DNA from: Xanthobacter agilis
GTDB lineage: Bacteria > Pseudomonadota > Alphaproteobacteria > Rhizobiales > Xanthobacteraceae
Direction of reading: 5' to 3'
DNA length: 34,944 bases
Assembly (NCBI RefSeq): GCF_021730435.1
Contig: NZ_JABWGX010000037.1
Location: forward strand, 1 to 34,944
In this document: piece after piece, positions 303-16,308 of the stretch
Numbering within the stretch: position 1 is the first letter of the stretch
How the letters are laid out: every line of letters begins with the position of its first letter
Notes under the pieces: generated by a model
What the model was told of the DNA's origin: nothing
What the model saw: the letters and a program-made list of their open reading frames with translations, nothing else
Database searches by the model: none
Program-made: the position numbers and the translations under genes

Positions 303-1289
303 ATGGCAGCTTCAGCTCACAATCCAGAGGGTCTGTCGCGCGGCGTGCGCATGCTGAGGACCGCGCTCGGTCCGGTGATTTCCCGCCTTCTCGATGACCC
401 CTCCGTCGTCGAGGTCATGCTCAATCCAGATGGCCGCCTCTGGGCCGACCGGCTGTCCGAAGGCCTCGGCGCCACGGGGGAGCGGCTGGCTCCCGGTGAT
501 GGCGAGCGCATCATCCGCCTCGTCGCGCACCACATCGGCGCCGAGGTCCACGCCGGGGCGCCTCGGCTGTCCGCCGAGCTTCCTGGGACCGGTGAGCGTT
601 TCGAGGGCCTCCTCCCGCCCGTAGTTGCGGCTCCGACCTTCGCCATCCGCAAGCCCGCCGTCGCCGTGTTCACGCTCGACGATTATGTCGCCGCCGGCAT
701 CATGTCTGCGCCGCAGGCAGAGGCTCTCCGTCACGGTGTTGTCTCCCGTGCCAACATCCTTGTGGCCGGTGGCACCTCCACCGGCAAAACCACCCTCACC
801 AATGCTCTGCTAGCCGAGGTCGCCAAGACCTCCGAGCGGGTCATCCTGATCGAGGACACGCGGGAGCTCCAATGCGCCGCGCCCAATCTGGTGGCCATGC
901 GCACGAAGGACGGCGTCGCCTCGCTCTCCGATCTCGTGCGCTCCTCGCTCCGCCTGCGGCCCGACCGCATCCCGATTGGCGAGGTGCGCGGCCCAGAGGC
1001 TCTGGATCTCCTGAAGGCGTGGGGGACGGGCCATCCCGGTGGCATCGGCACCATCCATGCGGGCAGCGCCATGGGCACTCTGCGACGGCTGGAGCAGCTC
1101 ATCCAGGAAGCCGTGGTCACCGTCCCGCGCGCTTTGATCGCCGAGACGATCGACCTCATCGCCGTGCTGTCGGGCCGCGGTGCCGCGCGCCGGTTGACCG
1201 AGCTCGTGCGTGTCGAAGGGCTCGGTCCTCAAGGCGACTACCGGATCTCCCCCCTCGTCCCTCCTTGTGAAGAAGGAACCTCCTCGTGA
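303..1289 (+). CDS. trbB: P-type conjugative transfer ATPase TrbB
   Basis: This is the VirB11-type hexameric traffic ATPase of the conjugative type IV secretion system. It works at the cytoplasmic face of the inner membrane and powers pilus assembly and substrate transfer. The 328-residue product has the family's usual length. The Walker A motif GGTSTGKTT lies at residues 156-164 (K162), followed by an acidic stretch (LIEDTREL) and the conserved [19 protein letters not shown] and GTIHAG segments of secretion ATPases. The start at 303 is preceded by a GGGGATGAG purine run. It is the first gene of a trb operon and its stop overlaps the GTG start of trbC. I see no missing catalytic residue. The family assignment is secure. 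Confidence 0.95.
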
Positions 1290-1618
1290 ATTCGATCCCC
1301 GTCTCCCTCCCTCGCCGCCTACTGATAACCACGGCTGCTGCAGCCGCCCTCGCCTGCGCGGTGTCCGCCGCCCATGCCTCCGGTTCCTCCATGCCCTGGG
1401 AGACGCCGCTGCAGTCGATCCTGGACTCCATCCAGGGGCCTGTTGCCAAGATCATCGCCGTGATCGTCATCATCTCGACCGGCCTCGCACTCGCCTTCGG
1501 CGACACCTCCGGCGGGTTCCGCCGGCTGATCCAGATCGTGTTCGGCCTCTCCATCGCCTTCGCCGCCTCGAGCTTCTTCTTGTCCTTCTTCTCCTTCAGC
1601 GGCGGAGCGCTGGTCTGA
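1286..1618 (+). CDS. trbC: TrbC/VirB2-family conjugal pilin
   Basis: This is the pilin subunit precursor of the conjugative pilus. The 110-residue product begins with a basic stretch and a hydrophobic signal segment ending in an Ala-rich VSAAHA cleavage-like region (residues about 10-32). Two further hydrophobic helices follow (about 54-72 and 83-105) with a short polar loop holding GDTSGGFRR, the usual VirB2/TrbC layout. The GTG start overlaps the trbB stop in GTGA, and GAAGGAA about 10 bases upstream serves as ribosome-binding site, which points to translational coupling. The stop TGA shares its last base with the ATG of trbD. Sequence conservation of pilins is low, so the call relies on topology and position. 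Confidence 0.9.
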   Translation: MNSIPVSLPRRLLITTAAAAALACAVSAAHASGSSMPWETPLQSILDSIQGPVAKIIAVIVIISTGLALAFGDTSGGFRRLIQIVFGLSIAFAASSFFLSFFSFSGGALV

Positions 1619-1890
1619 TGCCGGCCGATATCGGCGAAGTGCCCGGCTTCTCCGTCCCGGTCCACCGGGCCCTGAGCGAGCCGATCCTGCTTGGCGGCGC
1701 GCCGCGGGCGATCGCGATCTTCAACGGCACCCTCGCCGGCGCCATCGGGCTGGGGCTGAGGCTCTGGCTCGTTGGCCTCGCCCTTTGGGCCGTCGGCCAT
1801 CTCGCCGCCGTCTGGGCCGCCAAGCGCGATCCGCTCTTTGTCGACGTGGTGCGTCGGCATCTGCGCATCCCCTCCCATCTGTCGGTCTGA
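1618..1890 (+). CDS. trbD: Conjugal transfer protein TrbD (VirB3-like)
   Basis: This small inner-membrane protein of 90 residues belongs to the TrbD/VirB3 family, which partners the TrbE/VirB4 ATPase during pilus biogenesis. The start at 1618 overlaps the trbC stop as TGATG. The protein contains the family-like stretch PVHRALSEPILLGGAPR near residues 13-29, then one long or two closely spaced hydrophobic segments (about 32-65), and ends with a soluble tail (RDPLFVDVVRRHLR). An open frame continues upstream to 1210, but that part lies antiparallel to the trbB/trbC reading and is not expected to be translated. The gene sits between trbC and trbE, as in other P-type systems. Confidence 0.9.
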   Translation: MPADIGEVPGFSVPVHRALSEPILLGGAPRAIAIFNGTLAGAIGLGLRLWLVGLALWAVGHLAAVWAAKRDPLFVDVVRRHLRIPSHLSV

Positions 1891-1902
1891 GCGAGGCACA
1901 CC

Positions 1903-4341
1903 ATGATGAACCTCGCCGAGTATCGTCGTCAGGGGAGTCGTTTGGCGGACTATCTGCCGTGGGCGGCTCTCGTCGACCCGGGCATCGTCCTCAACAAGGA
2001 CGGCAGCTTCCAGCGCACCGCGCGCTTCCGCGGGCCAGACCTCGACTCGGCCGTGCCCGCCGAACTCGTGGCGGTGGCGGGTCGCCTCAACAGCGCCTTC
2101 CGCCGCCTCGGCTCAGGCTGGGCGCTGTTCGTGGAAGCCCAGCGGCACGAAGCGGGCGCTTATCCCGAGAGCCTCTTCCCCGATCCCGCTTCCGCTTTGG
2201 TGGATGCCGAGCGCAAGGCGGGCTTCGCCGAGGCCGGCAGCCATTTTGAGTCGAGCTATTTCCTCACCTTCTGTTGGCTCCCACCAGCGGAGGATGCCGC
2301 ACGGGCAGAGAGCTGGCTCTATGAGGGGCGTGGGCGCGAGGGTGTCGACCCCCGCGAAGCACTGGATGGCTTCGCCGACCGGACAGACCGGGTGCTCCGG
2401 CTGGTCGAGAGCTTCATGCCGGAGTGCCGCTGGCTCGATGACGCCGAGACCCTGACCTATCTGCACGGCTGCGTATCGACCCGGCGCCAGCGGGTGCGCG
2501 TTCCCGAGACGCCCATGTATCTCGATGCGCTTCTCGCCGACGAGCCGCTCACCGGTGGGCTGGAGCCCATGTTGGGCACGGAGCACTTGCGTGTCCTCAC
2601 CATCGTGGGTTTTCCCACGGCGACGACGCCAGGGATCCTCGACGACCTCAACCGACTGGCCTTTCCCTATCGCTGGTCCACCCGCGCCATCCTCCTCGAT
2701 AAGACAGACGCGACCCGGCTGCTCACGAAAATCCGTCGGCAGTGGTTCGCCAAGCGCAAGTCCATCGCCGCCATCCTCAAGGAGGTGATGACCAACGAAG
2801 CTTCGGTGCTGGTGGATTCGGATGCCGCCAACAAGGTGGAGGACGCCGACCTCGCCCTTCAGGAGCTCGGCGCCGACCATGCCGGCATCGCCTATGTCAC
2901 CGCCACGGTAACGGTCTGGGGTGCCGATCCCCGCATCGCCGACGAGAAGCTCCGGCTGGTGGAGAAGGTGATCCAGGGCCAGGACTTCACGGCCATGGTC
3001 GAGACCATCAACGCCGTAGACGCCTGGCTCGGCAGCCTGCCGGGGCATGTCTATGCCAACGTTCGCCAGCCGCCGGTCTCCACCCTGAACCTCGCCCACA
3101 TGATCCCGCTCTCGGCGGTCTGGGCGGGAGACGAGCAGGACGGGCATTTTGCGGCGCCGCCTTTGTTCTACGGCAAGACCGAAGGCTCCACCCCGTTCCG
3201 CTTCTCGCTGCATGTGGGGGATGTGGGCCATACGCTGGTAGTGGGACCGACCGGCGCCGGCAAGTCCGTGCTGCTGGCGCTGATGGCATTGCAGTTCCGG
3301 CGCTATGCCGGATCCCAGGTGTTCGCCTTCGACTTCGGCGGCAGCATCCGGGCGGCCGCCCTCGCCATGGGCGGCGACTGGCACGACCTCGGCGGAAGCC
3401 TGTCCGATGGGAGCGAAGACAGCGTCGCGCTCCAGCCGCTCGCCCGTGTGGATGAGCTCGCCGAACGCTCGTGGGCTGCTGACTGGATCACGGCGATCCT
3501 CTCCCGCGAGGGCGTTTCCATCGCCCCGGAGGTGAAGGAGCATATCTGGTCGACCCTCACCTCGCTCGCCTCCGCGCCGGTCGAGGAGCGCACCCTGACC
3601 GGCCTCGCCGTCCTGCTCCAGTCCAACGATCTCAAACAGGCGCTGCGTCCCTATTGTATCGGTGGCGCCCATGGCCGGCTGCTCGATGCGGAGGTCGAGC
3701 ACCTGGGACAGGCGTCCGTCCAGGCCTTCGAGACCGAGGGGCTGATCGGCACCAGTGCGGCCCCGGCGGTGCTGTCCTATCTGTTTCACAGCATCGAGGA
3801 CCGGCTCGACGGATCGCCGACCCTCCTCATCATCGACGAGGGATGGCTCGCCCTCGATGATCCGGGCTTTGCCGGCCAGCTCCGCGAGTGGCTCAAGACG
3901 CTGCGGAAGAAGAACGCCAGCGTCGTCTTCGCCACGCAGTCCCTCTCCGACATCGACGGCTCGGCCATCGCCCCGGCCATCATCGAGAGCTGCCAGACGC
4001 GGCTGCTGCTCCCCAACGAGCGGGCCGTCGAGCCCCAGATCACCGCCATCTACCGGCGCTTCGGCCTCAACGACCGGCAGATCGAGATCCTCGCACGGGC
4101 CACCCCGAAGCGGGACTATTACTGCCAGTCCCGACGCGGCAACCGCCTGTTCGAGCTCGGGCTGTCGCAGGTGGCGCTCGCCTTGTGCGCCGCCGGGTCC
4201 AAGACCGATCAGGCTGCGCTCTCGCAGATCCTCGCCGAGCATGGGCGCGATGGTTTCCTCGCCGCCTGGCTACGGCATCGGGGCCTCGGCTGGGCCGCCG
4301 ACCTCATCCCCACCCTCGACCTTCTGGAGACACGCTCATGA
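1903..4341 (+). CDS. trbE: Conjugal transfer ATPase TrbE (VirB4 family)
   Basis: TrbE is the large VirB4-type ATPase at the base of the secretion channel and is needed for pilus assembly. The 812-residue product has a CagE/TrbE/VirB4 N-terminal domain and a C-terminal ATPase domain. Walker A is GPTGAGKS at residues 448-455 (K454), and Walker B is LLIIDEG with D645-E646. Downstream the family-typical ATQSLSDI segment is present. Two adjacent ATG codons (1903 and 1906) are possible starts, with GAGCGAGG upstream. The gene follows trbD after 12 bases and its stop overlaps the trbJ start (ATGA). Length and motifs are complete. Confidence 0.96.
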   Translation: MMNLAEYRRQGSRLADYLPWAALVDPGIVLNKDGSFQRTARFRGPDLDSAVPAELVAVAGRLNSAFRRLGSGWALFVEAQRHEAGAYPESLFPDPASALVDAERKAGFAEAGSHFESSYFLTFCWLPPAEDAARAESWLYEGRGREGVDPREALDGFADRTDRVLRLVESFMPECRWLDDAETLTYLHGCVSTRRQRVRVPETPMYLDALLADEPLTGGLEPMLGTEHLRVLTIVGFPTATTPGILDDLNRLAFPYRWSTRAILLDKTDATRLLTKIRRQWFAKRKSIAAILKEVMTNEASVLVDSDAANKVEDADLALQELGADHAGIAYVTATVTVWGADPRIADEKLRLVEKVIQGQDFTAMVETINAVDAWLGSLPGHVYANVRQPPVSTLNLAHMIPLSAVWAGDEQDGHFAAPPLFYGKTEGSTPFRFSLHVGDVGHTLVVGPTGAGKSVLLALMALQFRRYAGSQVFAFDFGGSIRAAALAMGGDWHDLGGSLSDGSEDSVALQPLARVDELAERSWAADWITAILSREGVSIAPEVKEHIWSTLTSLASAPVEERTLTGLAVLLQSNDLKQALRPYCIGGAHGRLLDAEVEHLGQASVQAFETEGLIGTSAAPAVLSYLFHSIEDRLDGSPTLLIIDEGWLALDDPGFAGQLREWLKTLRKKNASVVFATQSLSDIDGSAIAPAIIESCQTRLLLPNERAVEPQITAIYRRFGLNDRQIEILARATPKRDYYCQSRRGNRLFELGLSQVALALCAAGSKTDQAALSQILAEHGRDGFLAAWLRHRGLGWAADLIPTLDLLETRS

Positions 4342-5072
4342 TCCGCCTGATGCTGCGGGCGGCGCTCGTCGCTGCGCCGCTCCTCATGTGTCCGCTCGCG
4401 CCGGCCGCGGCACAGGCCGTGGTCTTTGACCCCTCCAACTATGCCCAGAACGTCCTCCAGGCGGCGCGGGCGCTTCAGCAGGTCACCAACCAGATCACCT
4501 CGCTTCAGAATGAAGCACAGATGCTGATCAACCAGGCCCGCAACCTCGCGAGCCTGCCATATTCCTCCCTGAGCGCGCTCCAGCAGTCGGCCCAGCGTAC
4601 CCAGCAACTGCTCGGGCAGGCCCAGAAGATCGCCTATGACGTCGGCGCCATCGATCGGGCGTTCCAGGGCCAGTACGGCTCGGTCTCCGTGAGCAGTTCG
4701 GATGCCGCTCTTGTCACCCAGGCCAGGAGCCGCTGGGAGACCACGGTCGCCGGCCTGCAGGATGCGCTGCGGGTGCAGGCGGGCGTCGTGGGCAATCTCG
4801 ATTCCGGCCGCACCCAGGCCTCGACGCTGGTCGGCCAGAGCCAGGCGGCGAGCGGCGCACTACAGGCGATGCAGGCCGGCAACCAGCTCCAGGCGCTCCA
4901 GTCGCAGCAGCTCTCCGACCTCACGGCGGTGATGGCTGCCAATGGCCGGGCGCAGGCCCTGTCCGATGCCGAGCGCGCGACGGCGGTGTCGGAAGGCGAG
5001 GAGCGCTACCGGCGCTTCTCCACCCGGTCGAGCTACCAGCCCTCCACCGTCACCATGTTCCGCGGGAACTGA
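4338..5072 (+). CDS. trbJ: P-type conjugative transfer protein TrbJ (VirB5-like)
   Basis: TrbJ is a periplasmic or pilus-associated component corresponding to VirB5 and is thought to sit at the pilus tip or base. The 244-residue product has a clear signal peptide at residues 1-26 (basic MIRLMLRAA start, hydrophobic core, AAAQA end). The mature part is rich in Gln and Ala and predicted largely helical, with NYAQNVLQAARALQQVTNQ near its start, a hallmark of this family. The start at 4338 overlaps the trbE stop by four bases. The frame stays open upstream inside trbE, but the signal peptide fixes the start. Confidence 0.93.
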   Translation: MIRLMLRAALVAAPLLMCPLAPAAAQAVVFDPSNYAQNVLQAARALQQVTNQITSLQNEAQMLINQARNLASLPYSSLSALQQSAQRTQQLLGQAQKIAYDVGAIDRAFQGQYGSVSVSSSDAALVTQARSRWETTVAGLQDALRVQAGVVGNLDSGRTQASTLVGQSQAASGALQAMQAGNQLQALQSQQLSDLTAVMAANGRAQALSDAERATAVSEGEERYRRFSTRSSYQPSTVTMFRGN

Positions 5073-5081
5073 GGCGCGGCC

Positions 5082-5345
5082 ATGGATCAGGGCACCGCGC
5101 TCCGAACCCTCGTCGTCGCCGGCCTTGTGGGCGCGGTGATTACAGCCCTGGCCACGGCCGCAGGCAGGCCTCACGAGCCGACTGTCACTATCAGCAGCGT
5201 GCCAGCAGGAAACGTCTCCTCGGTCGACCTCAAGAGCTGCGCCACGCTGGAGCGGACCGATCCCGTCGATCCGCATTGCGCCGCGCTCTGGGAGGCGAAC
5301 CGCCGCCGCTTCTTCGGCAAGCCCGTGGACGGAGCGACGCCATGA
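5082..5345 (+). CDS. trbK: Putative entry-exclusion protein TrbK-alt
   Basis: This 87-residue protein has one N-terminal hydrophobic segment (about residues 8-27) followed by a small soluble domain containing two cysteines (in LKSCATLE and DPHCAALW) and ending in RRRFFGKP. That pattern is characteristic of the alternative TrbK family in rhizobial-type trb operons, proposed to block redundant entry of the same element into a cell that already carries it. Unlike plasmid RP4 TrbK, no lipobox is visible. It lies nine bases after trbJ and its stop overlaps the trbL start. The exclusion function is inferred from family naming and position only. Confidence 0.85.
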   Translation: MDQGTALRTLVVAGLVGAVITALATAAGRPHEPTVTISSVPAGNVSSVDLKSCATLERTDPVDPHCAALWEANRRRFFGKPVDGATP

Positions 5346-6613
5346 ATGACGTGGGCGTCATCGACACCTTCCTCAACACCTTCACCAGCTACATCGATTC
5401 CGGCTTCGGCCTGATCAAGGGCGAGGTGGCGGGCCTCTCCTCCATCCTGATCGCCCTCGACATCACGCTCGCGGGCCTGTTCTGGGCCTGGGGCGCCGAC
5501 GAGGACGTGATGCGCCGGCTGGTGCGCAAAACCCTCGCCATCGGCTTCTTCGCCTGGATCATCGGCAACTTCAACGGCCTTGCGAAGATCGTCTTCGAGA
5601 GCTTCGCCGGGCTCGGCCTCAAGGCCGGCGGGTCGACCATCAGCACGGCGGAGTTCCTGCGGCCGGGGCGGCTCGCGGAAGTGGGGCTCACCGCCGGCCA
5701 ACCATTGCTCGATGCGGCCAGCCAACTCACCGGGCCTGTGGCGCTCTTCGTCAATGCCGTGCAGATCGCCGTGCTTCTCGTCTCCTGGCTCCTGATCCTC
5801 ATCGCCTTCTTCATCCTGGCGGTGCAGCTCTTCGTCACCCTCATCGAGTTCAAGCTGACGACGCTCGCCGGCTTCGTCCTCCTCCCCTTCGCCTTCTTCG
5901 GCAAGACCGCCTTCCTCGCCGAGAAGGTGCTCGGCAACATCGTGGCGTCGGGCGTCAAGGTGATGGTGCTCGCCGTCATCGTCGGCATCGGCTCAGGGCT
6001 GTTCTCTCAATTCGCCACCTCCTATGGCGATGCCCAGCCGACCATCAGCCAGGCCCTGTCCGCCGTGCTGGCAGCGCTGGCGCTGCTCGGCCTCGGCATT
6101 TTCGGACCGGGGATCGCCACAGGCCTGATCACCGGCGCGCCGCAACTCGGAGCCGGCGCCGCCGTGGGGACTGGGCTTGCCGCAGGAGGTGTGGCGCTCG
6201 CGGGAGCGGGTGCCGCTGGCGTCGCGGTACGCGGAGCCGGCGCTGCCCTGTCGGGAACAGCAGCGGCAGCACGAGCTGGCGCGAACCTCGCCGGAGGTGC
6301 TGCATCCGCCTACAGCGCGGGGGCCGCCGGCCAGTCTGGGCTGTCCGGCGTCGCAGGAGGTCTGGGCGGCGTCGCGCGCGCTGGGGCAGCCTCTCCGTTG
6401 CGCGGATCAGCCGCCGCCTCGCCGACCTCTGGAGCCACTCCCACCCCGCCGAGCAGTCCGGCCTCTTCCGGAGATGTCCCGGATTGGGCCCAGCGCATGC
6501 GCCGCTCCCAGCAGGTCGCTCACGGCATCCAGACCGCCACACACGCGGTGCGGTCCGGCGACAGCCATGGCGGTGGCTCCTCCATCTCCCTCTCCGAAAG
6601 CGATCGCCCATGA
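5342..6613 (+). CDS. trbL: P-type conjugative transfer protein TrbL (VirB6-like)
   Basis: TrbL is the polytopic inner-membrane channel component matching VirB6. The 423-residue product opens with MNDVGVIDTFLNTFTSYID, typical of TrbL, and has about five or six hydrophobic helices between residues 30 and 270. The remaining third is a low-complexity tail rich in Ala, Gly and Ser, then Pro/Ser, which is common in this family and variable in length. The start at 5342 overlaps the trbK stop; the frame is open upstream to 5276, but that would overlap trbK further and adds no family sequence. Its stop overlaps the trbF start in ATGA. Confidence 0.94.
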   Translation: MNDVGVIDTFLNTFTSYIDSGFGLIKGEVAGLSSILIALDITLAGLFWAWGADEDVMRRLVRKTLAIGFFAWIIGNFNGLAKIVFESFAGLGLKAGGSTISTAEFLRPGRLAEVGLTAGQPLLDAASQLTGPVALFVNAVQIAVLLVSWLLILIAFFILAVQLFVTLIEFKLTTLAGFVLLPFAFFGKTAFLAEKVLGNIVASGVKVMVLAVIVGIGSGLFSQFATSYGDAQPTISQALSAVLAALALLGLGIFGPGIATGLITGAPQLGAGAAVGTGLAAGGVALAGAGAAGVAVRGAGAALSGTAAAARAGANLAGGAASAYSAGAAGQSGLSGVAGGLGGVARAGAASPLRGSAAASPTSGATPTPPSSPASSGDVPDWAQRMRRSQQVAHGIQTATHAVRSGDSHGGGSSISLSESDRP

Positions 6614-7299
6614 CGCCCTTCAAGCGACCATCGGTCCATTACGGCCGATCTCCCGAACCCGAGACGCCGTATCAGCGTGCGGCCCAGGTCTGGGACGATC
6701 GCATCGGCTCCGCTCGCGTTCAGGCGAAGAACTGGCGCCTCATGGCCTTCGGTTGCCTCGCGCTTGCGGCAGGCCTCTCCGGGGCTCTGGCCTGGCAGGC
6801 GCTGAGCGGCTCGGTGGTTCCGTGGGTCGTTCAGGTGGACAAGCTCGGGCAGGCGCAGGCGGTTGCACCCGCCACCTCGGACTATCGCCCCTCCGATCCC
6901 CAGATCGCCTTCCACCTCGCCCGCTTCATCGAGGAGGTGCGCAGCATCTCCGCCGATCCCGTCATCGTCCGGCAGAACTGGCTTAGGGCCTATGCCTATA
7001 CGACGCAGGCCGGCGCCATCGCGCTCAATGACTATGCCCGAGCCAACGATCCCTTCGCCCGGGTCGGCAAGCAACAGGTAGCGGTGGAGGTCTCGAGCGT
7101 CATCCGCGCCTCGCCGGACTCCTTCCGCATTGCCTGGACCGAGCGCCGCTACCAGGACGGCAGCCTCGCCGACACCGCCCGCTGGAGCGCCATCCTCACC
7201 GTCGTGGTGCAGGCGCCGCGGGACGCCGAGCGCCTCCGGGCCAATCCGCTCGGGATCTACGTCAACGCCATCAACTGGTCGAAGGAACTCGCACAATGA
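6610..7299 (+). CDS. trbF: Conjugal transfer protein TrbF (VirB8-like)
   Basis: TrbF is a bitopic inner-membrane protein equivalent to VirB8 that nucleates assembly of the secretion channel. The 229-residue product has a cytoplasmic N-terminus with the family signature ETPYQRAAQVWDDRIGSAR at about residues 17-35, one transmembrane helix (about 41-62), and a periplasmic VirB8-type domain ending in NPLGIYVNAINWSKEL. The length is normal. It overlaps both neighbours by four bases, trbL upstream and trbG downstream, consistent with coupled translation of assembly partners. Confidence 0.95.
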   Translation: MTPFKRPSVHYGRSPEPETPYQRAAQVWDDRIGSARVQAKNWRLMAFGCLALAAGLSGALAWQALSGSVVPWVVQVDKLGQAQAVAPATSDYRPSDPQIAFHLARFIEEVRSISADPVIVRQNWLRAYAYTTQAGAIALNDYARANDPFARVGKQQVAVEVSSVIRASPDSFRIAWTERRYQDGSLADTARWSAILTVVVQAPRDAERLRANPLGIYVNAINWSKELAQ

Positions 7300-8348
7300 C
7301 GACGGCCATCCGCACATCCGGGAGGCCGGCGCGCCGTGTCCTCTCTTCTCAGGCGTTCCGTAAGTCCGGCTTGCCGCTTCTCCTCATTTGCACTTCCGCC
7401 CTCGCCGGCTGTGCCACCTTCGAGAAGCCGCCCGAGATCGAATATGACGATGCTCCGCCCGCCGTCTTCAAGGCCGAGCCGCCGGGGCCGGTGCGCATCG
7501 TCGAGCTGCCGAAGCCTTTGCCGCTGCCTGGCCAGTTGAAGCCTGTGGGGAAGGACGGCAAGGCAGAACCGGAAGCGACCGACCCTGCAGCTCGCGTGAA
7601 CCAGGCCAATGCCGCCGCGCGCGTGCAACCCGTCCGCAACGGCTTCATCAACTCCATGCAGGTCTATCCCTTCGTGGAAGGCGCGCTCTATCAGGTCTAT
7701 GCAGCGCCGGGGCAGGTCACCGACATCGCCCTACAGCCCGGTGAGCAACTGGTGGGCACGGGGCCGGTCGCCGCCGGCGACACGGTGCGCTGGATCATTG
7801 GCGACACCGAGAGCGGGGCGGGCGGAGCGAAGCAGGTCCACATCCTGGTGAAGCCCACCCGGGTGGACCTCACCACCAACCTCGTCATCAACACCAATCT
7901 GCGCACCTATCACATGGAGCTGCGCTCCACCGAGAAGACCTACATGGCCTCGGTCTCCTGGCAGTATCCACAGGACCAGCTCATCGCGCTGCGGCGCCAG
8001 AATGCCGAGGCTCAGGTGGTGCAGCCGGTCGCCACCGGCATCGATCTCACACGAGTGAACTTTCGCTACGAGGTGACTGGAGACCGGGCGCCGTGGCGGC
8101 CGCTACGCGCCTTCGACGATGGCCAGCAGGTGTTCATCGAGTTTCCGCGCGGCATCGCCCAGGGCGAGATGCCGCCGCTCTTCGTGGTCGGCTCGCAGGG
8201 CGACACCTCCGAACTCGTCAACTATCGCGTGCGCGGCAATTACATGATCGTCGACCGCCTGTTTGCCGCGGCCGAGTTGCGCTTCGGCGCCGACAAGGAC
8301 CAGAAGCGCGTGAGGATCTCCCGAACCGACGGGAGGCAGGTCCTATGA
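7296..8348 (+). CDS. trbG: P-type conjugative transfer protein TrbG (VirB9-like lipoprotein)
   Basis: TrbG is the outer-membrane-associated VirB9/CagX-family component of the core complex, interacting with TrbI. The 350-residue product starts with a basic region and a hydrophobic signal ending in the lipobox LAGC (C39), so it is probably a lipoprotein. A Pro-rich linker follows, then the VirB9-type beta domain with YPFVEGALYQVYAAPGQV at about residue 125 and the C-terminal family block RGNYMIVDRLFAAAELRFG. In this system the usual VirB7 lipoprotein is not separately encoded; the lipid anchor on TrbG may substitute for it. Four-base overlaps link it to trbF and trbI. Confidence 0.95.
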   Translation: MTTAIRTSGRPARRVLSSQAFRKSGLPLLLICTSALAGCATFEKPPEIEYDDAPPAVFKAEPPGPVRIVELPKPLPLPGQLKPVGKDGKAEPEATDPAARVNQANAAARVQPVRNGFINSMQVYPFVEGALYQVYAAPGQVTDIALQPGEQLVGTGPVAAGDTVRWIIGDTESGAGGAKQVHILVKPTRVDLTTNLVINTNLRTYHMELRSTEKTYMASVSWQYPQDQLIALRRQNAEAQVVQPVATGIDLTRVNFRYEVTGDRAPWRPLRAFDDGQQVFIEFPRGIAQGEMPPLFVVGSQGDTSELVNYRVRGNYMIVDRLFAAAELRFGADKDQKRVRISRTDGRQVL

Positions 8349-9592
8349 GCGGCATCGAACCCGGGAAGGAGAAAGGGCTGGGATCGGCTGGCGATGACGG
8401 AGCCCGACCGCTCACGGGGGAGGCTATGGCGGCCATGCGGCTGCGGCCCGAGCCGCCGCGGGTGACCCGCCTGTCCCGCAAGGTTCTGGCCGGGCTGGGG
8501 CTGGTTGCTGGCCTCGGGATCGGCGGAGCCCTGATCTACGCCCTGCAGGCGCGGAAAGACCACGGACCCGGCCAGGAGCTGTACGCCACCGACTTTAGGG
8601 CGACGCCGGACGGGCTCGCCGGCCTGCCCAAGGATTACACTGGCATCCCCAAGCTTGGGCCGCCTCTGCCCGGCGACCTCGGTCGGCCCATCCTCAATGC
8701 GCAGACGGCAGTGCAGCCGCCGATCCCGGCGATGGGAGGCATGCCCAATCCCGCTCTGAGCCCCGAGGAGCAGCGCCAGCAGCAGGAGACCGAGTCGGCG
8801 CGGACAGGACGGCTGTTCGCCCAGACCAACACGCGGCCAGCCAGTCCTGTCGTGGCGCAACAGGTGAGCGCAGCGTCGGCAACGACGGCGACTCCTGTCC
8901 CGGATCTGACGTCCCTTGGTCTTGCCCCGCCGGCGGCGACACCGACGGCCCAGGAGCGCCAGCTCGCCTTCCTCAACCAGGCGGTGGACCGGCGCAGCGT
9001 CGCGCCCGACCGTGTGGCGGCTCCGGCCTCGGCCAATGTCCTGCAAGCCGGCGCCGTCATCCCCGCTGCGCTGATCACCGGCATCCGCTCCGACCTGCCG
9101 GGTCAGATCACCGCTCAGGTGACCGAGAATGTTCATGATAGCCCGACCGGCCGGATCCTCCTGATCCCTCAGGGCACCCGCATCATCGGCCAGTACGACA
9201 ATGGCGTCGGCTTCGGGCAGCGCCGGGTGCTTCTGGCTTGGAACCGCCTTATCTTCCCCAATGGCCGCTCCATCGTGCTGGAGCGCCAGCCCGGAGCCGA
9301 CGCCGAGGGCTACGCCGGCCTTGAGGATGGCGCCGACTATCACTGGGGCGAGCTGTTCAAGGCGGCTGTGCTCTCCACCATCCTGAGCGTCGGGGCGAGC
9401 GCAGGCACGTCAGGTAGCGACAGCGACCTCGCCAGCGCCCTGCGCGAGGGCGCCTCCGACAGCATCAGCCAGACCGGCCGCCAGATCGTCCAGCGCCAGC
9501 TCAACATCGCCCCGACGCTCAGTGTCCGGCCGGGATACCCGGTGCGGGTCATCGTCACGCGCGATCTCGTTCTTGAACCTTACGGAGGCTGA
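8345..9592 (+). CDS. trbI: Conjugal transfer protein TrbI (VirB10-like)
   Basis: TrbI is the VirB10-type scaffold that spans from the inner to the outer membrane in the core complex. The 415-residue product has a cytoplasmic N-terminus, one transmembrane helix at about residues 45-67, a long Pro/Gln/Ala-rich periplasmic linker, and the conserved C-terminal VirB10 domain with IPAALITGIRSDLPGQITAQV, LIPQGTRIIGQYDN and the ending RPGYPVRVIVTRDLVLEPY. Its start overlaps the trbG stop. One base separates its stop from the DUF2274 gene, which is the usual order in alphaproteobacterial ICEs. Confidence 0.95.
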   Translation: MSGIEPGKEKGLGSAGDDGARPLTGEAMAAMRLRPEPPRVTRLSRKVLAGLGLVAGLGIGGALIYALQARKDHGPGQELYATDFRATPDGLAGLPKDYTGIPKLGPPLPGDLGRPILNAQTAVQPPIPAMGGMPNPALSPEEQRQQQETESARTGRLFAQTNTRPASPVVAQQVSAASATTATPVPDLTSLGLAPPAATPTAQERQLAFLNQAVDRRSVAPDRVAAPASANVLQAGAVIPAALITGIRSDLPGQITAQVTENVHDSPTGRILLIPQGTRIIGQYDNGVGFGQRRVLLAWNRLIFPNGRSIVLERQPGADAEGYAGLEDGADYHWGELFKAAVLSTILSVGASAGTSGSDSDLASALREGASDSISQTGRQIVQRQLNIAPTLSVRPGYPVRVIVTRDLVLEPYGG

Positions 9593-9593
9593 C

Positions 9594-9881
9594 ATGCCGA
9601 AGCTGAAGCTCAGCGAGATCCTTGACGAGAAGCCGGTGAAGGTGACCGTGGAGCTACCGGCGAAGCTGCATCGGGACCTTGTCGCCTACTCGGAAATCCT
9701 TAGTCGGGAAAACAATCAGTCCCCTACAGAGCCATCCCGTCTCGTAGTCCCCATGCTTGAGCGCTTCATCGCGACGGATCGTGGATTTGCGAAGGCTCGG
9801 CGCGCTGCGCCTCCAGATCCTGCGAACGGGCAATCGCTGGGTTCGCTTCCGAGGAGGGAGCCATCGTCCGGGCAAGGCTGA
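9594..9881 (+). CDS. DUF2274 family protein of the trb operon
   Basis: The 95-residue product begins KLKLSEILDEKPVKVTVELPAKLHRDLVAY, matching DUF2274 proteins that regularly close trb operons in Hyphomicrobiales elements. The arrangement (short strand, then helices, then VPMLERFIATDRGFAKARR) recalls ribbon-helix-helix DNA-binding proteins, so a regulatory role is plausible, but no function is established. The start at 9594 is one base after the trbI stop, with TTACGGAGG at 9580-9588 as ribosome-binding site inside trbI. The C-terminal roughly 38 residues overlap the 3' end of the convergent LysR gene, so this tail may be non-native extension caused by loss of the original stop. Confidence 0.82.
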   Translation: MPKLKLSEILDEKPVKVTVELPAKLHRDLVAYSEILSRENNQSPTEPSRLVVPMLERFIATDRGFAKARRAAPPDPANGQSLGSLPRREPSSGQG

Positions 9882-11296: not shown

Positions 11297-11373
11297 TGGC
11301 GCACCCGACACGATTCGAACGTGTGGCCTCCGCCTTCGGAGGGCGGCGCTCTATCCAGCTGAGCTACGGGTGC
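11297..11373 (-). tRNA. tRNA-Arg, anticodon CCG
   Basis: The minus strand reads a complete 77-nt tRNA. The acceptor arms are GCACCCG (11373-11367) and CGGGTGC (11307-11301), with discriminator G and an encoded CCA at 11299-11297. The D-arm (GCTCAGCTGGATAGAGC), the anticodon stem CCGCC/GGCGG with loop CTCCGAA, and the T-arm with GTTCGAATC are all intact. Anticodon CCG reads the Arg codon CGG. The 3' end faces the trb region, the orientation expected when an ICE integrates into the 3' end of a tRNA gene. A partial copy of its 5' half lies upstream at 11498-11539. No strong promoter is visible directly before this copy. Confidence 0.97.
11332..11373 (-). repeat. 42-bp direct repeat, copy 1 (5' half of intact tRNA-Arg)
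   Basis: These 42 bases, tRNA positions 1-42 through the anticodon loop, are identical to 11498-11539 in the same orientation. Identity stops sharply on both sides (11331 against 11497, and 11374 against 11540). The two copies enclose a 124-bp spacer. Confidence 0.9.
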
Positions 11374-11497: not shown

Positions 11498-11539
11498 GCC
11501 TTCGGAGGGCGGCGCTCTATCCAGCTGAGCTACGGGTGC
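11498..11539 (-). pseudogene. Truncated tRNA-Arg(CCG) copy, 5' half only
   Basis: This is an exact copy of nucleotides 1-42 of the neighbouring tRNA-Arg: acceptor 5' strand, D-arm, anticodon loop and the start of the 3' anticodon stem. It lacks the 3' half, the T-arm and CCA, so it cannot give a functional tRNA by itself. The sequence following it (minus strand ACGTGTCAAGCC) has no similarity to the missing half. It begins exactly at tRNA position 1 and sits just downstream of a well-spaced promoter, which suggests that this is the original 5' end of the gene and that the intact copy was made by an insertion or duplication event. Confidence 0.88.
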
Positions 11540-11916: not shown

Positions 11917-11946
11917 TTGACATTCATGCCGCGATGGCCACTAAAT
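11917..11946 (+). promoter_or_regulatory. Predicted nrdAB promoter
   Basis: A perfect TTGACA at 11917-11922 is followed after 18 bases by CTAAAT (11941-11946), a weak -10. Transcription would start near 11953, at or just inside the 5' edge of the cobalamin aptamer. The -35 match and the position are the main support; the -10 is poor, so the exact boundaries are tentative. Confidence 0.4.
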
Positions 11947-12130
11947 GTTGTGGTCACGGTCTCTCGACTCGCAAGATCGAGAGCGAAGAGGGAAGTCGGT
12001 TTGAAGCCGGCGCTGCCCCCGCAACTGTAAGCGGCGAGTTCTTGTTCAAGCCATGTCACTGGGGCCGCAAGGCTTTGGGAAGACGGACAAGAGCCATGAC
12101 CCGCGAGCCAGGAGACCTGCCGCGACATCA
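11946..12130 (+). ncRNA. Cobalamin (B12) riboswitch aptamer upstream of nrdA
   Basis: The conserved core of the cobalamin riboswitch is directly readable: GAGGGAAG, then GCCGGCGCTGCCCCCGCAAC and TGTAAGCGGCGA, a GTCACTG segment, TTTGGGAAGACGGAC, GACCCGCGAG, and the B12 box AGCCAGGAGACCTGCC at 12106-12121. Order and spacing match the known class. It is on the same strand as nrdA and 112 bases before its first ATG. The family binds adenosylcobalamin and usually switches off the downstream gene. The 5' edge is approximate. Confidence 0.93.
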
Positions 12131-12152
12131 TGAACGTCCACGGGCGGGGTGT

Positions 12153-12198
12153 CCCGGGGGAACGCTTGCTCCGGGTGGCCTGTGCCGGCCCGGTTTTT
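12153..12198 (+). terminator. Riboswitch expression platform: antiterminator/intrinsic terminator
   Basis: CCGGG-T-GGC (12171-12179), loop CTGT, and GCC-GG-CCCGG (12184-12193) can form a GC-rich hairpin with a small internal loop, immediately followed by five T residues at 12194-12198. This is a textbook intrinsic terminator between aptamer and nrdA. The upstream CCCGG at 12153-12157 can pair instead with 12171-12175, giving a competing antiterminator. The expected logic is termination when adenosylcobalamin is bound. Folding was judged by eye. Confidence 0.7.
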
Positions 12199-12241
12199 CG
12201 CACGCGTCCGCCCGAACTCCGCCCCCAGTTCCACATCGGGG

Positions 12242-15148
12242 ATGATGATGCCTGCGACCGCCGAACGCCATGCCAATGGACTCCAACAGCTCCATCCGCC
12301 GGGGGCCGACCATGCGGTGGCGACGAGCGCCCCCGGCTACCAGCTCATCCGTCGCAACGGCGCGGTCACGCCGTTCGATGCCTCGAAGATCACGGTCGCG
12401 TTAACCAAGGCCTTTCTGGCCGTGGAAGGACAGCCCGCCGCCGCGTCTCGCCGCATCCACGACATCGTCGCCGGCCTGACCGAACAGATCGTGGCAAGCC
12501 TGACCCGGCGCCCCGACATCGGACGGACCTTTCATATCGAGGAGGTTCAGGATCAGGTGGAATTGGCGCTGATGCGCGGCGAGCACCACAAGGTCGCCCG
12601 AGCCTATGTGCTCTATCGCGAGGAGCGCGCGAAGGCCCGCGCCGCGGCACGGCCGGTGGCCATCCCCGCCCCCATGCTGCGGATGACGGCGGCGGACGGC
12701 ACACTTGAGCCGCTGGATGCCGGGCGCCTCGCCACCGTGATCGGCGAGGCCTGCGCGGAGCTCGACGGCGTCTGCGCCGAGGCGATCCTCACGGAGGCGC
12801 GGCGCAATCTCTATGACGGCATCTCGCTCGACGAACTGGCGCAGGCGCCCATCCTGGCGGCGCGCACGCTGGTGGAGACCGAGCCAAACTATTCCAAGGT
12901 CAGCGCCCGCCTGCTGCTGGACAAGCTGCGAAGAGAGGCCTTGAGCTTCGTCGCCGGACGGCCGGAACAGGCGACGCAGGCCGAGATGGCGGAGCGCTAT
13001 GGCGCGTATCTCCACGTTTATGTGAAGACCGGTATCGCCAATGCTCTGCTCGATCCCGAGCTCGGCCGCTTCGATCTGAGCCGGCTTGCGGCCGCGCTCA
13101 AGCCCGAGCGCGACCTCAAGTTTGATTATCTCGGCCTGCAGACCCTCTATGATCGCTATTTTCTCCATGTCTGCGGCACCCGCTTCGAGCTGCCGCAGGC
13201 GTTCTTCATGCGGGTCGCCATGGGGCTGGCTATGCGCGAGGTGGATCGGGAAGCGCAGGCCATCGCCTTTTACGATCTGCTTTCGTCCTTCGATTTCATG
13301 GCTTCGACGCCGACCTTGTTCAACGCCGGCACGCTCAGGCCGCAGCTGTCCTCCTGCTTCCTGACCACGGTGGCGGACGATCTCGAGGGCATCTTCAAGG
13401 CGGTGAAGGACAACGCCCTGCTCGCCAAATATTCCGGCGGCCTCGGCAATGACTGGACGCCGGTGCGCGGCCTCGGCGCGCACATCAAGGGCACCAACGG
13501 CGAAAGCCAGGGCATCGTGCCGTTCCTCAAGGTAGCCAACGATACCGCCATCGCGGTCAACCAGGGTGGCAAGCGCAAGGGCGCGGTCTGCGCGTACCTC
13601 GAAACCTGGCATGTGGACATCGAGGAGTTTCTCGACCTGCGGAAGAACACCGGCGACGACCGCCGCCGCACCCACGACATGAACACGGCAAACTGGATCC
13701 CCGATCTGTTCATGCAGCGGGTCGAGACCGGCGGACCATGGACCTTGTTCTCGCCCGACGAAGTGCCGGACCTGCACGATCTTTATGGCAAGCCCTTCAA
13801 GGCCGCCTATGAAGCCTATGAGGAAAAGGCCCGGCGCGGGGACATCAAGGTGTTCAAACAGGTGGCCGCGGTCGACCTCTGGCGGCGGATGCTGACCATG
13901 CTGTTCGAGACCGGCCACCCCTGGATCACCTTCAAGGATGCCTGCAACCTGCGCTCCCCGCAGAGCCATGCCGGTGTGGTGCACTCCTCGAACCTGTGCG
14001 CCGAGATCACGCTGAACACCAGCGCCGACGAGGTCGCGGTCTGCAACCTGGGCTCGGTTAACCTTGCCGCCCATGTCACCGTTGAGGGGCTCGATCAGGA
14101 AAAGCTCAAGCGCACGGTGACGACCGCCATGCGCATGCTCGACAATGTGGTGGACATCAATTTCTACACCATCTCCGAGGCGCGCCGCTCCAACCTGCGG
14201 CACCGCCCGGTGGGCCTGGGGCTGATGGGCTTCCAGGACGCGCTCCAGACCCTGCGCCTGCCGGCGGCGTCCGAAGCCGCGGTCAACTTTGCCGACACCT
14301 CCATGGAGGCGATCAGCTTTCATGCGATCTCGGCCTCGGTCGATCTCGCCGCCGAGCGCGGCCGCTATCCGAGTTTCGCCGGCTCGCTGTGGTCGAAGGG
14401 CATCCTGCCGATCGATTCGCTCGAAATCCTGTCGCAGGCCCGCGACGGCGATGTGGAGCTTGACCGGTCCTCGACGCTGGACTGGGAGAGCCTGCGCCAA
14501 CGGGTGCAGACCACCGGCATGCGCAACTCGAACACCATGGCGATCGCGCCGACCGCCACCATTTCCAACATCGTCGGCGTCTCCCAATCCATCGAGCCGT
14601 CCTACAGCCAGCTCTACGTCAAGGCGAACATGTCCGGTGACTTCACCGTGGTGAATGCCGACCTCGTGCGCGACCTGAAGGCGCGCGGGCTATGGGACGA
14701 AGTCATGATCTGCGACCTGAAATATTATGATGGCATGGTCAGCCGGATCGACCGCGTACCCGACGATCTGAAAGCGCTCTATGCCACCTCCTTCGAGATC
14801 GAACCGAGCTGGCTGATCCGCGCCGCCGCGCGCCGACAGAAATGGATCGACCAGGGCCAGTCGCTCAATCTCTACATGGCGCAGCCCTCGGGCCGGAAAC
14901 TTGATGAAGCCTATCGCCTGGCCTGGCGGCTGGGTCTCAAGACCACCTATTATTTGCGCGGCCTCAGCGCCACCCATGTGGAAAAATCCACCCTCAAGGG
15001 CACCGACGGCAAGCTCAACGCCGTTGCCGTCGGCGGCCTCACGGTCGCGGCGGCCGGTCCCATCCTGGTCGAGACGCCGCCATTCAACGACCCGGCCGCG
15101 CCGAGCGCCTGCGCCATCGACGACCCGACCTGCGAAGCCTGCCAGTGA
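12242..15148 (+). CDS. nrdA: Ribonucleoside-diphosphate reductase large subunit (class I, NrdA)
   Basis: NrdA reduces ribonucleoside diphosphates to deoxyribonucleotides using a thiyl radical delivered by NrdB. From the ATG at 12242 the product has 968 residues. It carries an N-terminal ATP-cone (about 33-125, [14 protein letters not shown]) and a second, more divergent cone-like repeat (about 145-235), as in Chlamydia NrdA. Active-site residues are C372 (LSSCFL), C586 with N584 and E588 (SNLCAEI), probably C601 (AVCNLG), the PTATISN block, and a C-terminal redox pair C964/C967 (TCEACQ). Three consecutive ATGs (12242, 12245, 12248) are possible starts; the frame continues upstream to 12149, but that would run through the terminator. 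The stop overlaps or nearly abuts nrdB. Confidence 0.95.
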
Positions 15149-15174
15149 GCAGCCGGAACCAAGGACTCATCACC

Positions 15175-16308
15175 ATGCTCGACTGGTCAGACCCCACCCC
15201 ACCGGCCGTCCCCACCCGCCGGCCCGCCGCGCCGCCGTTCGGAAACGCCGCCGGAGACACCACGGGACTTGGCGCCATCGACCGCTCCGGCGGACGCGTG
15301 AGCGTTGACGAGAAGCGGATGATCAACTGCCGCGCCGACGTCAATCAGCTCCTGCCACTCAAGTACAACTGGGCCTGGGAAAAGTATCTCTCCGCCTGCA
15401 ACAACCATTGGATGCCGACCGAGGTCTCCATGCAGGCCGATATCGCTTTGTGGAAGTCGCGCGATGGCCTCAGCGCGGACGAGCGACACGCCATCAAGCG
15501 CAATCTCGGCTTCTTCGCCGCCTCCGAAAGCCTCGTCGCCAACAACATCGTGCTGGCCATCTACCGCCACCTCACCAATCCCGAATGCCGGCAATATCTT
15601 TTGCGACAGGCGTTCGAGGAGGCGGTGCATACGCACACCTTTCAATACATCGTGGAAAGCCTGGGCCTCGACGAGGGCGAGCTGTTCAACATGTATCGGG
15701 AAGTGCCCTCCATCACCGACAAGGCGGCCTGGGCGCTGGCCCACACCCAGAGCCTGAGCGACCCGGCGTTCCGGACCGGGACGCCGGCGGCGGACCAGCA
15801 GTTCCTGCGTGATCTCGTCGCCTTCTACGTCGTGTTCGAGGGCATGTGGTTCTACACCGGCTTCGCGCAGATCCTCTCGCTCGGCCGGCGCAACAAGATG
15901 GTCGGCATCGCCGAGCAATACCAGTACATCCTGCGCGATGAGAGTATCCACCTGAACTTCGGCATCGACGTCATCAACCAGATCCGGCACGAAAACCCGC
16001 ATCTGTGGACGACGCAATTTCAGGAGGAGGTGCGCGGCATGCTGAAAGAGGCGGCCGCGCTCGAGGCCGCCTATGGGCGGGACACCATGCCGCGCGGCTT
16101 CCTCGGGTTGAACGCGGCGCTGTGCGAACAATACATGCACGTCATCACCAACCGCCGCTGCGCCCAACTCGGCCTTGCCCCGGTGTTCGCGGAAGCCGAG
16201 AATCCGTTTCCTTGGATGAGCGAGGCCATGGACCTGAAGAAGGAGAAGAACTTCTTCGAAACCCGCGTCATCGAATACCAGAACGGCGGCGCACTGGCCT
16301 GGGATTGA
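15175..16308 (+). CDS. nrdB: Ribonucleoside-diphosphate reductase small subunit, class Ic type
   Basis: NrdB builds the metal cofactor that starts catalysis in NrdA. Numbered from the ATG at 15175 (377 residues; AAGGA ten bases upstream), the metal ligands are E118 (ASESL), E149 and H152 (EEAVHTH), E222 (VFEGM), and E256 and H259 (RDESIH). The residue at the radical-tyrosine position, three after the H in THTF, is F156 (codon TTT at 15640-15642) instead of Tyr. First ligand Glu rather than Asp and Phe at this site define class Ic enzymes with a Mn/Fe cofactor, known from Chlamydia trachomatis; much of the rest also resembles that protein, including [14 protein letters not shown] near the end. 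A GTG at 15145 overlapping the nrdA stop is an alternative start. Confidence 0.94.

What the first reader, a model, noticed from the sequence alone, without database searches (positions are those of the whole stretch)
11946..16308. B12 riboswitch with intrinsic terminator controls a class Ic ribonucleotide reductase
Seen: a full cobalamin aptamer core ending in the B12 box at 12106-12121, a terminator hairpin with T5 at 12171-12198, a competing antiterminator using 12153-12157, then nrdA and nrdB. Known: B12 riboswitches control the B12-independent reductase in some bacteria that also have a class II enzyme (Streptomyces nrdABS is the known case). Inferred: this organism switches from Mn/Fe class Ic to B12-dependent class II when cobalamin is available. 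I am not aware of a described case with the class Ic subtype.
Basis: partly seen in the sequence, partly recalled or inferred. Interest (0 to 1): 0.75.

Follow-up and report, generated by a model that had tools for sequence, protein, structure and literature searches.

The report
B12 switch controls backup DNA-building enzyme
A vitamin B12-sensing RNA sits in front of genes for a DNA-precursor enzyme that works without B12, so the cell very probably makes this backup only when B12 runs short; the principle is known, but its use with this metal-based enzyme type, often beside other B12-free backup genes, seems little noticed.

Summary
The core of the finding holds. A full cobalamin aptamer (RF00174, 134 bits) lies directly upstream of nrdA-nrdB. 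NrdB carries the class Ic residues (Phe at the radical site, Glu as first metal ligand). The genome also encodes class II NrdJ, MetH and cobalamin genes; four further cobalamin riboswitches precede metE, a btuB-like gene, cobW-cobN-cobG and a cbiM-like gene.

The arrangement is common: 59 of 76 class Ic nrdAB loci with an intact upstream region carry the aptamer, mainly in Alphaproteobacteria, Acidobacteria and Actinobacteria. Streptomyces NrdB is class Ia by residues (29 of 29 looked at), so the Ic pairing differs from that precedent. My searches showed no paper describing it.

The intrinsic terminator is weaker than claimed: not conserved and not above chance in shuffles. A conserved L13 hairpin and, in most relatives, a tendency to mask the nrdA start site suggest translational control there.

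New here: in the window's genus, this nrdA and metE occur in exactly the same 4 of 14 genomes, while all 14 have NrdJ-type and MetH genes. Across the order class Ic nrdB and metE co-occur strongly and are often neighbours: a B12-bypass gene cluster. Verdict: real, new variant of a known kind.

The parts
11940..12138 (+). Cobalamin riboswitch aptamer (RF00174)
   Evidence: cmscan 134.2 bits, E 7.3e-34, full length; repeated in the whole-genome scan
12012..12022 (+). P5-L5 with C-rich loop (GCUGCCCCCGC), presumed half of the L5-L13 kissing loop
   Evidence: sequence; L5-L13 kissing loop described in PMC9600662 (passages); assignment of L5 here is mine
12105..12121 (+). B12 box (3' part of the aptamer core)
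   Evidence: sequence match
12138..12159 (+). P13-L13 hairpin (core pairs 12141-12144/12153-12156, loop CGGGGUGU 12145-12152), complementary to L5
   Evidence: motif in 40 of 42 leaders tested; alignment of 40 of those 42 leaders, L073 and L075 left out
12153..12175 (+). Candidate antiterminator: 12153-12159 paired with 12169-12175
   Evidence: unconstrained MFE of the RNA up to 12198
12171..12198 (+). Candidate intrinsic terminator hairpin + U5
   Evidence: -14.3 kcal/mol; not conserved and not above shuffles
12222..12241 (+). C-run (12222-12226) and G-run (12238-12241): counterpart of the start-site hairpin seen in relatives
   Evidence: G-run found in 36 of 42 leaders, all 36 with a C-run by a lenient pattern, G-run more paired than the shuffle median in 33 of 36, but not in the window itself
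12248..15148 (+). nrdA, class I ribonucleotide reductase large subunit with two ATP-cone stretches (start 12242, 12245 or 12248)
   Evidence: PRK07207 1680 bits; Pfam RNR barrel, ATP-cone
15175..16308 (+). nrdB, class Ic small subunit (Phe at radical site, Glu first ligand); ORF opens at GTG 15145, many relatives match from residue 11, i.e. ATG 15175
   Evidence: PRK07209 667 bits; residues; solved relatives; match starts in relatives

Best explanation
This is an AdoCbl-type riboswitch that turns OFF a B12-independent, class Ic (Mn/Fe-type) ribonucleotide reductase when cobalamin is plentiful, leaving deoxynucleotide synthesis to the B12-dependent class II NrdJ. Ligand binding lets C-rich loop L5 kiss G-rich loop L13, which stabilises P13 (core 12141-12144/12153-12156). 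That takes 12153-12159 out of the antiterminator, so the 12171-12193 hairpin can form before U5; masking of the nrdA start site may act as well or instead, as is likely in relatives. Without B12 the 12153-12159 strand pairs downstream and nrdAB is expressed. Shown here: aptamer, genes, subclass by residues, presence of NrdJ and of the rest of the B12 regulon, conservation of the arrangement, and nascent-leader fold energies that fit OFF-by-ligand. Inferred: ligand binding, sign of control, Mn/Fe cofactor, and which expression platform acts in this copy.
For: RF00174 134.2 bits. Class Ic residues, solved relatives. NrdJ, MetH, cobQ/cobW/cobN/cobG and metE above their cut-offs and a BtuB-like receptor below its cut-off, a CbiM-family protein. 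The five riboswitches precede btuB-like, cbiM-like, cobW-cobN-cobG, metE and nrdAB: the classic cobalamin regulon plus two B12-free isozymes. 59 of 76 intact class Ic loci have the aptamer. In the alphaproteobacterial set the aptamer goes with NrdJ: 33 of 38 with aptamer against 2 of 7 without (Fisher p 0.003). Folding of the RNA to 12198: -30.2 free with antiterminator, -25.5 with terminator when the P13 core is formed and L13 is kept unpaired. In P. acnes much nrdAB transcription appears to end before the first gene, where a cobalamin riboswitch is annotated (PMC3848588, passages).
Against: No ligand or expression data. The terminator is not conserved and not above chance. In the full leader (to 12256) even the free MFE contains the 12171-12193 hairpin, so the antiterminator wins only in the nascent RNA. 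The start-site G-run is not better paired than in shuffles in the window itself. 6 of 55 aptamer-bearing genomes scored for NrdJ showed none (L015, L016, L026, L043, L067, L087; L015, L043 and L067 are MAGs); the association is not significant outside the alphaproteobacterial set (p 0.61). Folding energies ignore tertiary structure and transcription speed.
Confidence: 0.88

Rival explanations
1. Same OFF switch, but the control is translational: ligand-held P13-L13 leaves a C-run free to pair with the G-rich Shine-Dalgarno of nrdA; without ligand the L13 G-run takes the C-run instead. The window's hairpin+U5 is incidental.
For: Terminator not above shuffles across 42 leaders; no U-run in the printed leader of the congener L124. 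Of 42 leaders 36 have a G-run before the start, all 36 with a C-run upstream; the G-run is more paired than the shuffle median in 33 of 36 (binomial p 1e-7, which treats related leaders as independent).
Against: Only 7 of 36 leaders are individually in the lowest 5% of shuffles; the C-run pattern is lenient; in the window the G-run is less masked than in shuffles (0.10 against 0.06 unpaired); 6 of 42 leaders had no G-run at the start I assumed. This copy does have a strong hairpin + U5. No probing data.
Confidence: 0.45
2. The aptamer is a decayed relic and nrdAB is expressed constitutively.
For: A relative in which no NrdJ was detected (L016) has a lower-scoring aptamer (102.7 bits) with a changed core, so decay may occur.
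Against: 134.2 bits with intact core, B12 box, L5 and L13; NrdJ is present.
Confidence: 0.05
3. The switch turns nrdAB ON with B12.
For: If 12153-12175 were taken as P13, ligand would block the terminator.
Against: The conserved GGGG loop lies at 12145-12152, not in 12160-12168; with that P13 the terminator forms in the bound proxy; ON would make the B12-free enzyme when it is least needed (inference).
Confidence: 0.03

Closest known systems
Streptomyces nrdABS B12 riboswitch (Borovok 2006; title seen in reference lists, paper not read)
   Same: Cobalamin riboswitch upstream of a class I RNR; that Streptomyces also has class II NrdJ is recalled (an NrdJ match was seen here in S. nanshensis, G060)
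   Different: Ordinary Streptomyces NrdB is class Ia by residues (Tyr, Asp) in 29 of 29 loci looked at and 33-37% identical to P0002; the window's is class Ic. One Streptomyces (S. nanshensis, L077/L093) carries a class Ic operon with an aptamer
Propionibacterium (Cutibacterium) acnes nrdAB and nrdDG cobalamin riboswitches (PMC3848588, passages read)
   Same: Cobalamin riboswitch on B12-independent RNRs, none annotated before nrdRJ; RNA-seq suggests early termination
   Different: Actinobacterium; RNR subclass of its NrdB not checked here
metE cobalamin riboswitches (e.g. Priestia megaterium metE/metH, PMC9600662, passages)
   Same: Same logic: ligand represses the B12-independent isozyme; L5-L13 kissing loop
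   Different: Methionine synthase instead of RNR
Chlamydia class Ic RNR (solved chains 4d8f, 1syy; organism recalled)
   Same: 449-bit match; same Phe and Glu in the printed 4d8f alignment
   Different: Riboswitch there not examined

Membership tests
Cobalamin riboswitch RF00174 | Covariance-model match above gathering score | tested here: met
   134.2 against 31.5 bits, full length
Cobalamin riboswitch RF00174 | L5-L13 kissing-loop partners | tested here: met
   C-rich L5 at 12012-12022 and CGGGGUGU loop at 12145-12152 complementary; hairpin motif in 40 of 42 leaders
Cobalamin riboswitch RF00174 | Binding of a cobalamin and change of expression | not testable with these tools
   needs probing or reporter assays
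Intrinsic-terminator riboswitch | Terminator hairpin + U-tract competing with an antiterminator, more than chance | tested here: inconclusive
   present and competing in the nascent-RNA fold; not conserved, 38 of 500 shuffles as good
Class Ic ribonucleotide reductase (NrdB-Phe) | Phe instead of the radical Tyr; Glu as first metal ligand | tested here: met
   F166, E128 in the window and in 80 of 80 relatives; Tyr/Asp in 29 of 29 Streptomyces Ia controls; name NrdB-Phe for the Mn-Fe type in PMC2795772 (passages)
Class Ic ribonucleotide reductase (NrdB-Phe) | Mn(IV)/Fe(III) cofactor | not testable with these tools
   needs purified protein
B12-switched RNR pair (B12-free class I + class II NrdJ) | Class II NrdJ in the same genome | tested here: met
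   contig C3, PRK07562 2300 bits
B12-switched RNR pair (B12-free class I + class II NrdJ) | Cobalamin made or taken up by the host | tested here: met
   cobQ, cobW, cobN, cobG and a BtuB-like receptor, CbiM family; completeness of the pathway not tested

The most novel reading that the evidence does not exclude
Many Hyphomicrobiales that live by B12-dependent MetH and NrdJ have repeatedly gained a riboswitch-gated B12-bypass island: metE, class Ic nrdAB and in some a glycine-betaine-monooxygenase-like gbcAB pair, each with its own cobalamin riboswitch, which turns obligate B12 users into facultative ones. The window holds the nrdAB part of this module.
Probability: 0.6. Interest if true: 0.62.

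Novelty: new variant of a known kind. Interest (0 to 1): 0.5.

Why it matters
It extends riboswitch control of RNR choice from the tyrosyl-radical class Ia to the Mn/Fe-type class Ic enzyme, and ties dNTP synthesis to a choice between cobalt (B12) and Mn/Fe. The strong pairing of nrdAB(Ic) with metE gives a ready natural experiment: within one genus, 4 of 14 genomes carry both B12-free isozymes and 10 showed neither, although all 14 have NrdJ-type and MetH genes. That makes the question of how bacteria become facultative B12 users directly testable. In Sinorhizobium meliloti nrdJ is essential unless a B12-free RNR is supplied (PMC6759758, passage), so such a gain could matter.

Tried and rejected
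Intrinsic terminator as the conserved expression platform: rejected for the family after the shuffle and orthologue tests; left open for this copy.

The idea that Streptomyces nrdABS might itself be class Ic (which would have made the finding already known): rejected, 29 of 29 ordinary Streptomyces NrdB looked at have Tyr and Asp (loci were returned for 30 of the 59 matching genomes of 61 searched; one of the 30 is S. nanshensis).

An ON switch: rejected on the position of L13.

Pattern search for aptamers alone undercounted: 42 of 76; cmscan of the other 34 intact loci added 17.

Formal covariation of P13 and the start-site hairpin was not run: P13 is nearly invariant and the C-run is not aligned column by column.

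No structure prediction was run; the solved-chain matches and residues were enough.

Literature: ten searches. In the listings and in the passages I opened (14 papers) I saw no class Ic RNR under a cobalamin riboswitch and no metE-nrdAB island; many listed papers were not opened. The library lacks most subscription papers; Rodionov 2003 and Vitreschak 2003 were not held, so earlier listing of such operons cannot be excluded. Recalled, not read: those two reported B12 elements upstream of B12-independent isozymes. PMC4428469 mentions a class Ic-like NrdB in M. tuberculosis, without a riboswitch link in the passages shown.
Full report
What is there. The window is one whole contig (C30, 34,944 bases) of a 4.81-Mb genome. 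By its named relatives (Azorhizobium, Ancylobacter, Bradyrhizobium, Kaistia and others) it is probably a Hyphomicrobiales alphaproteobacterium (inferred). cmscan finds one riboswitch, RF00174 at 11940-12138 (+), 134.2 bits. It precedes nrdA (NCBIfam PRK07207, 1680 bits, two ATP-cone stretches) and nrdB (PRK07209, 667 bits). nrdB has the residues of class Ic, Phe in place of the radical Tyr and Glu as first ligand, and its best solved relatives are 6y2n and then 4d8f/1syy (that the latter are Chlamydia is recalled). All 80 named relatives share both residues. Many relatives match from residue 11 of the called ORF, so nrdB probably begins at ATG 15175.

The rest of the regulon. The genome has five cobalamin riboswitches: before nrdAB, metE, a BtuB-like receptor (below its cut-off), cobW-cobN-cobG and a CbiM-family cobalt transporter. 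It has two RNR large-subunit genes: this nrdA and a class II NrdJ with 2300 bits to PRK07562. MetH is present (1738 bits). So both B12-dependent enzymes have a B12-independent counterpart, and in each case the counterpart carries the riboswitch.

How it probably works. Cobalamin riboswitches act through a kissing loop between L5 and L13 (PMC9600662, passages; PMC2258182, passages: a C-rich loop pairing with sequence outside the core). I take L5 to be the C-rich loop at 12012-12022 and L13 the loop at 12145-12152 of a hairpin whose motif is in 40 of 42 tested leaders. In the RNA up to 12198 the free fold has 12153-12159 paired with 12169-12175 and no terminator (-30.2 kcal/mol); with four P13 pairs forced and L13 unpaired the terminator forms (-25.5). 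In the full leader to 12256, however, the free fold also holds the 12171-12193 hairpin. And the hairpin + U5 is not more than chance: 38 of 500 shuffles of this leader reach -14 with a T-rich tail, and 9 of 42 orthologous leaders have any such site against 199 of 840 shuffles. Of the same 42 leaders, 36 have a G-run before the assumed start codon, all 36 with a C-run upstream (lenient pattern), and in 33 of 36 the G-run is more paired than the shuffle median, though only 7 of 36 fall in the lowest 5% (p 1e-7 if leaders were independent). The window is one of the 3 exceptions. So most relatives look translational, and the platform of this copy is undecided.

How common it is. Of the 80 class Ic loci, 4 are cut off upstream (L017, L029, L062, L080). 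Of the other 76, 59 have the aptamer: 42 by pattern and 17 more by cmscan of the remaining 34. By the records' own titles: 41 of 48 in the alphaproteobacterial set, 6 of 6 Acidobacteria, 10 of 20 Actinobacteria, plus one Vicinamibacterales and one Eremiobacterota bin. NrdJ was scored in 72 (left out: L053 and L054 not held, L048 and L092 fragmentary): 49 with aptamer and NrdJ, 6 with aptamer only, 11 with NrdJ only, 6 with neither (p 0.028); alphaproteobacterial set alone 33, 5, 2, 5 (p 0.003); the others p 0.61. I called NrdJ by hand as a TIGR02504 match well above that of nrdA itself. L016, without detected NrdJ, has a changed core and 102.7 bits. L026 (Erythrobacter) has the aptamer and no NrdJ but a second, weaker RNR match.

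The bypass cluster. In the window's genus all 14 genomes have a NrdJ-type match (about 350 bits, frames of 1255-1344 aa) and MetH. An nrdA of this kind is in 4 (G000, G142, G148, G149), each with an aptamer just upstream. NrdB in G142 and G148 has Phe and Glu; in G149 the contig ends inside nrdA. Full-length metE is in exactly the same 4 (Fisher p 0.001). In G142 and G149 metE lies directly upstream of nrdA, each gene with its own aptamer. Across 249 genomes of the order (E at most 1e-80), NrdB of this type is in 31, MetE in 32, both in 23 (p 9e-19; by genus 17 shared of 23 and 21 among 108, p 2e-11). Of the 23, 17 have both on one contig within 20 kb and 14 within 5 kb. Against this, 8 of 31 lack metE; in 5 of the 23, the window's genome among them, the two lie on different contigs; metE is broken or cut in G346 and G393; and the counts do not correct for ancestry beyond genus. 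metE was also seen in the flank of 11 of the 80 named loci, in L029 and L037 only as a short piece; a metE-side aptamer was visible in 7 of those 11 (L014, L030, L034, L038, L046, L051 by pattern; L047 by cmscan).

A third member. Ten loci have an aptamer downstream of nrdB. In five of them (L026, L028, L031, L039, L046) it precedes a Rieske oxygenase that resembles glycine betaine monooxygenase GbcA (L031: 517 bits, below the curated cut-off of 670), with a GbcB-like gene after it in L031 (379 bits, cut-off 500); the L026 aptamer scores 109.6 bits in cmscan. PMC12478193 (passages) sets the dioxygenase GbcAB beside the cobalamin-dependent MtgBCD for demethylating glycine betaine; that GbcAB is the B12-free option is my inference. 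This fits the bypass idea but is sequence evidence only.

Known and new. Cobalamin riboswitches on B12-independent RNRs are known: Streptomyces nrdABS (title in reference lists), P. acnes nrdAB and nrdDG (PMC3848588, passages), nrdD in Chlorobium (PMC8620254, passages). Ordinary Streptomyces NrdB is class Ia (29 of 29 looked at). I saw no paper on class Ic with this riboswitch nor on the metE-nrdAB cluster, within an incomplete library and mostly from listings. I file it as a new variant of a known kind.

Noticed in passing
L026:7144-8711, L028:7079-8567, L031:6801-9426, L039:6951-8439, L046:6785-8280: A cobalamin aptamer with an unusual core (CGCAACGGTAG) and B12 box, downstream of class Ic nrdB, precedes a GbcA-like Rieske monooxygenase gene in five loci.
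   Followed up: partly
G142:C11 (L133), G149:C148 (L135); order-wide set: metE and class Ic nrdAB co-occur strongly and are often neighbours; in G142 and G149 each has its own riboswitch.
   Followed up: yes
window 303-9881: A conjugation (trb/T4SS) gene set (secretion ATPase, TrbC, TrbE-like, TrbL, VirB8, CagX, TrbI-like, DUF2274) lies left of the finding, as in integrative conjugative elements.
   Followed up: partly
window 11297-11373 and 11498-11539: tRNA-Arg (CCG) and a perfect 42-base partial copy of it 166 bases away, between the trb genes and nrdAB; may be an attachment-site remnant.
   Followed up: partly
L047, L051, L063 upstream of nrdA: Back-to-back cobalamin aptamers on opposite strands; in L047 and L051 they lie between divergent metE and nrdAB.
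   Followed up: partly
L016:2117-2317: Aptamer with changed core (GCTGTGCCCGCACCTGTCA) and lower score before class Ic nrdAB in a genome without detected NrdJ: possible decay after loss of class II.
   Followed up: no
L077/L093: Streptomyces nanshensis carries class Ic instead of the usual class Ia nrdAB, with an aptamer upstream; it is the only one of the 59 matching genomes in the Streptomyces draw with a class Ic-level match to P0002.
   Followed up: no
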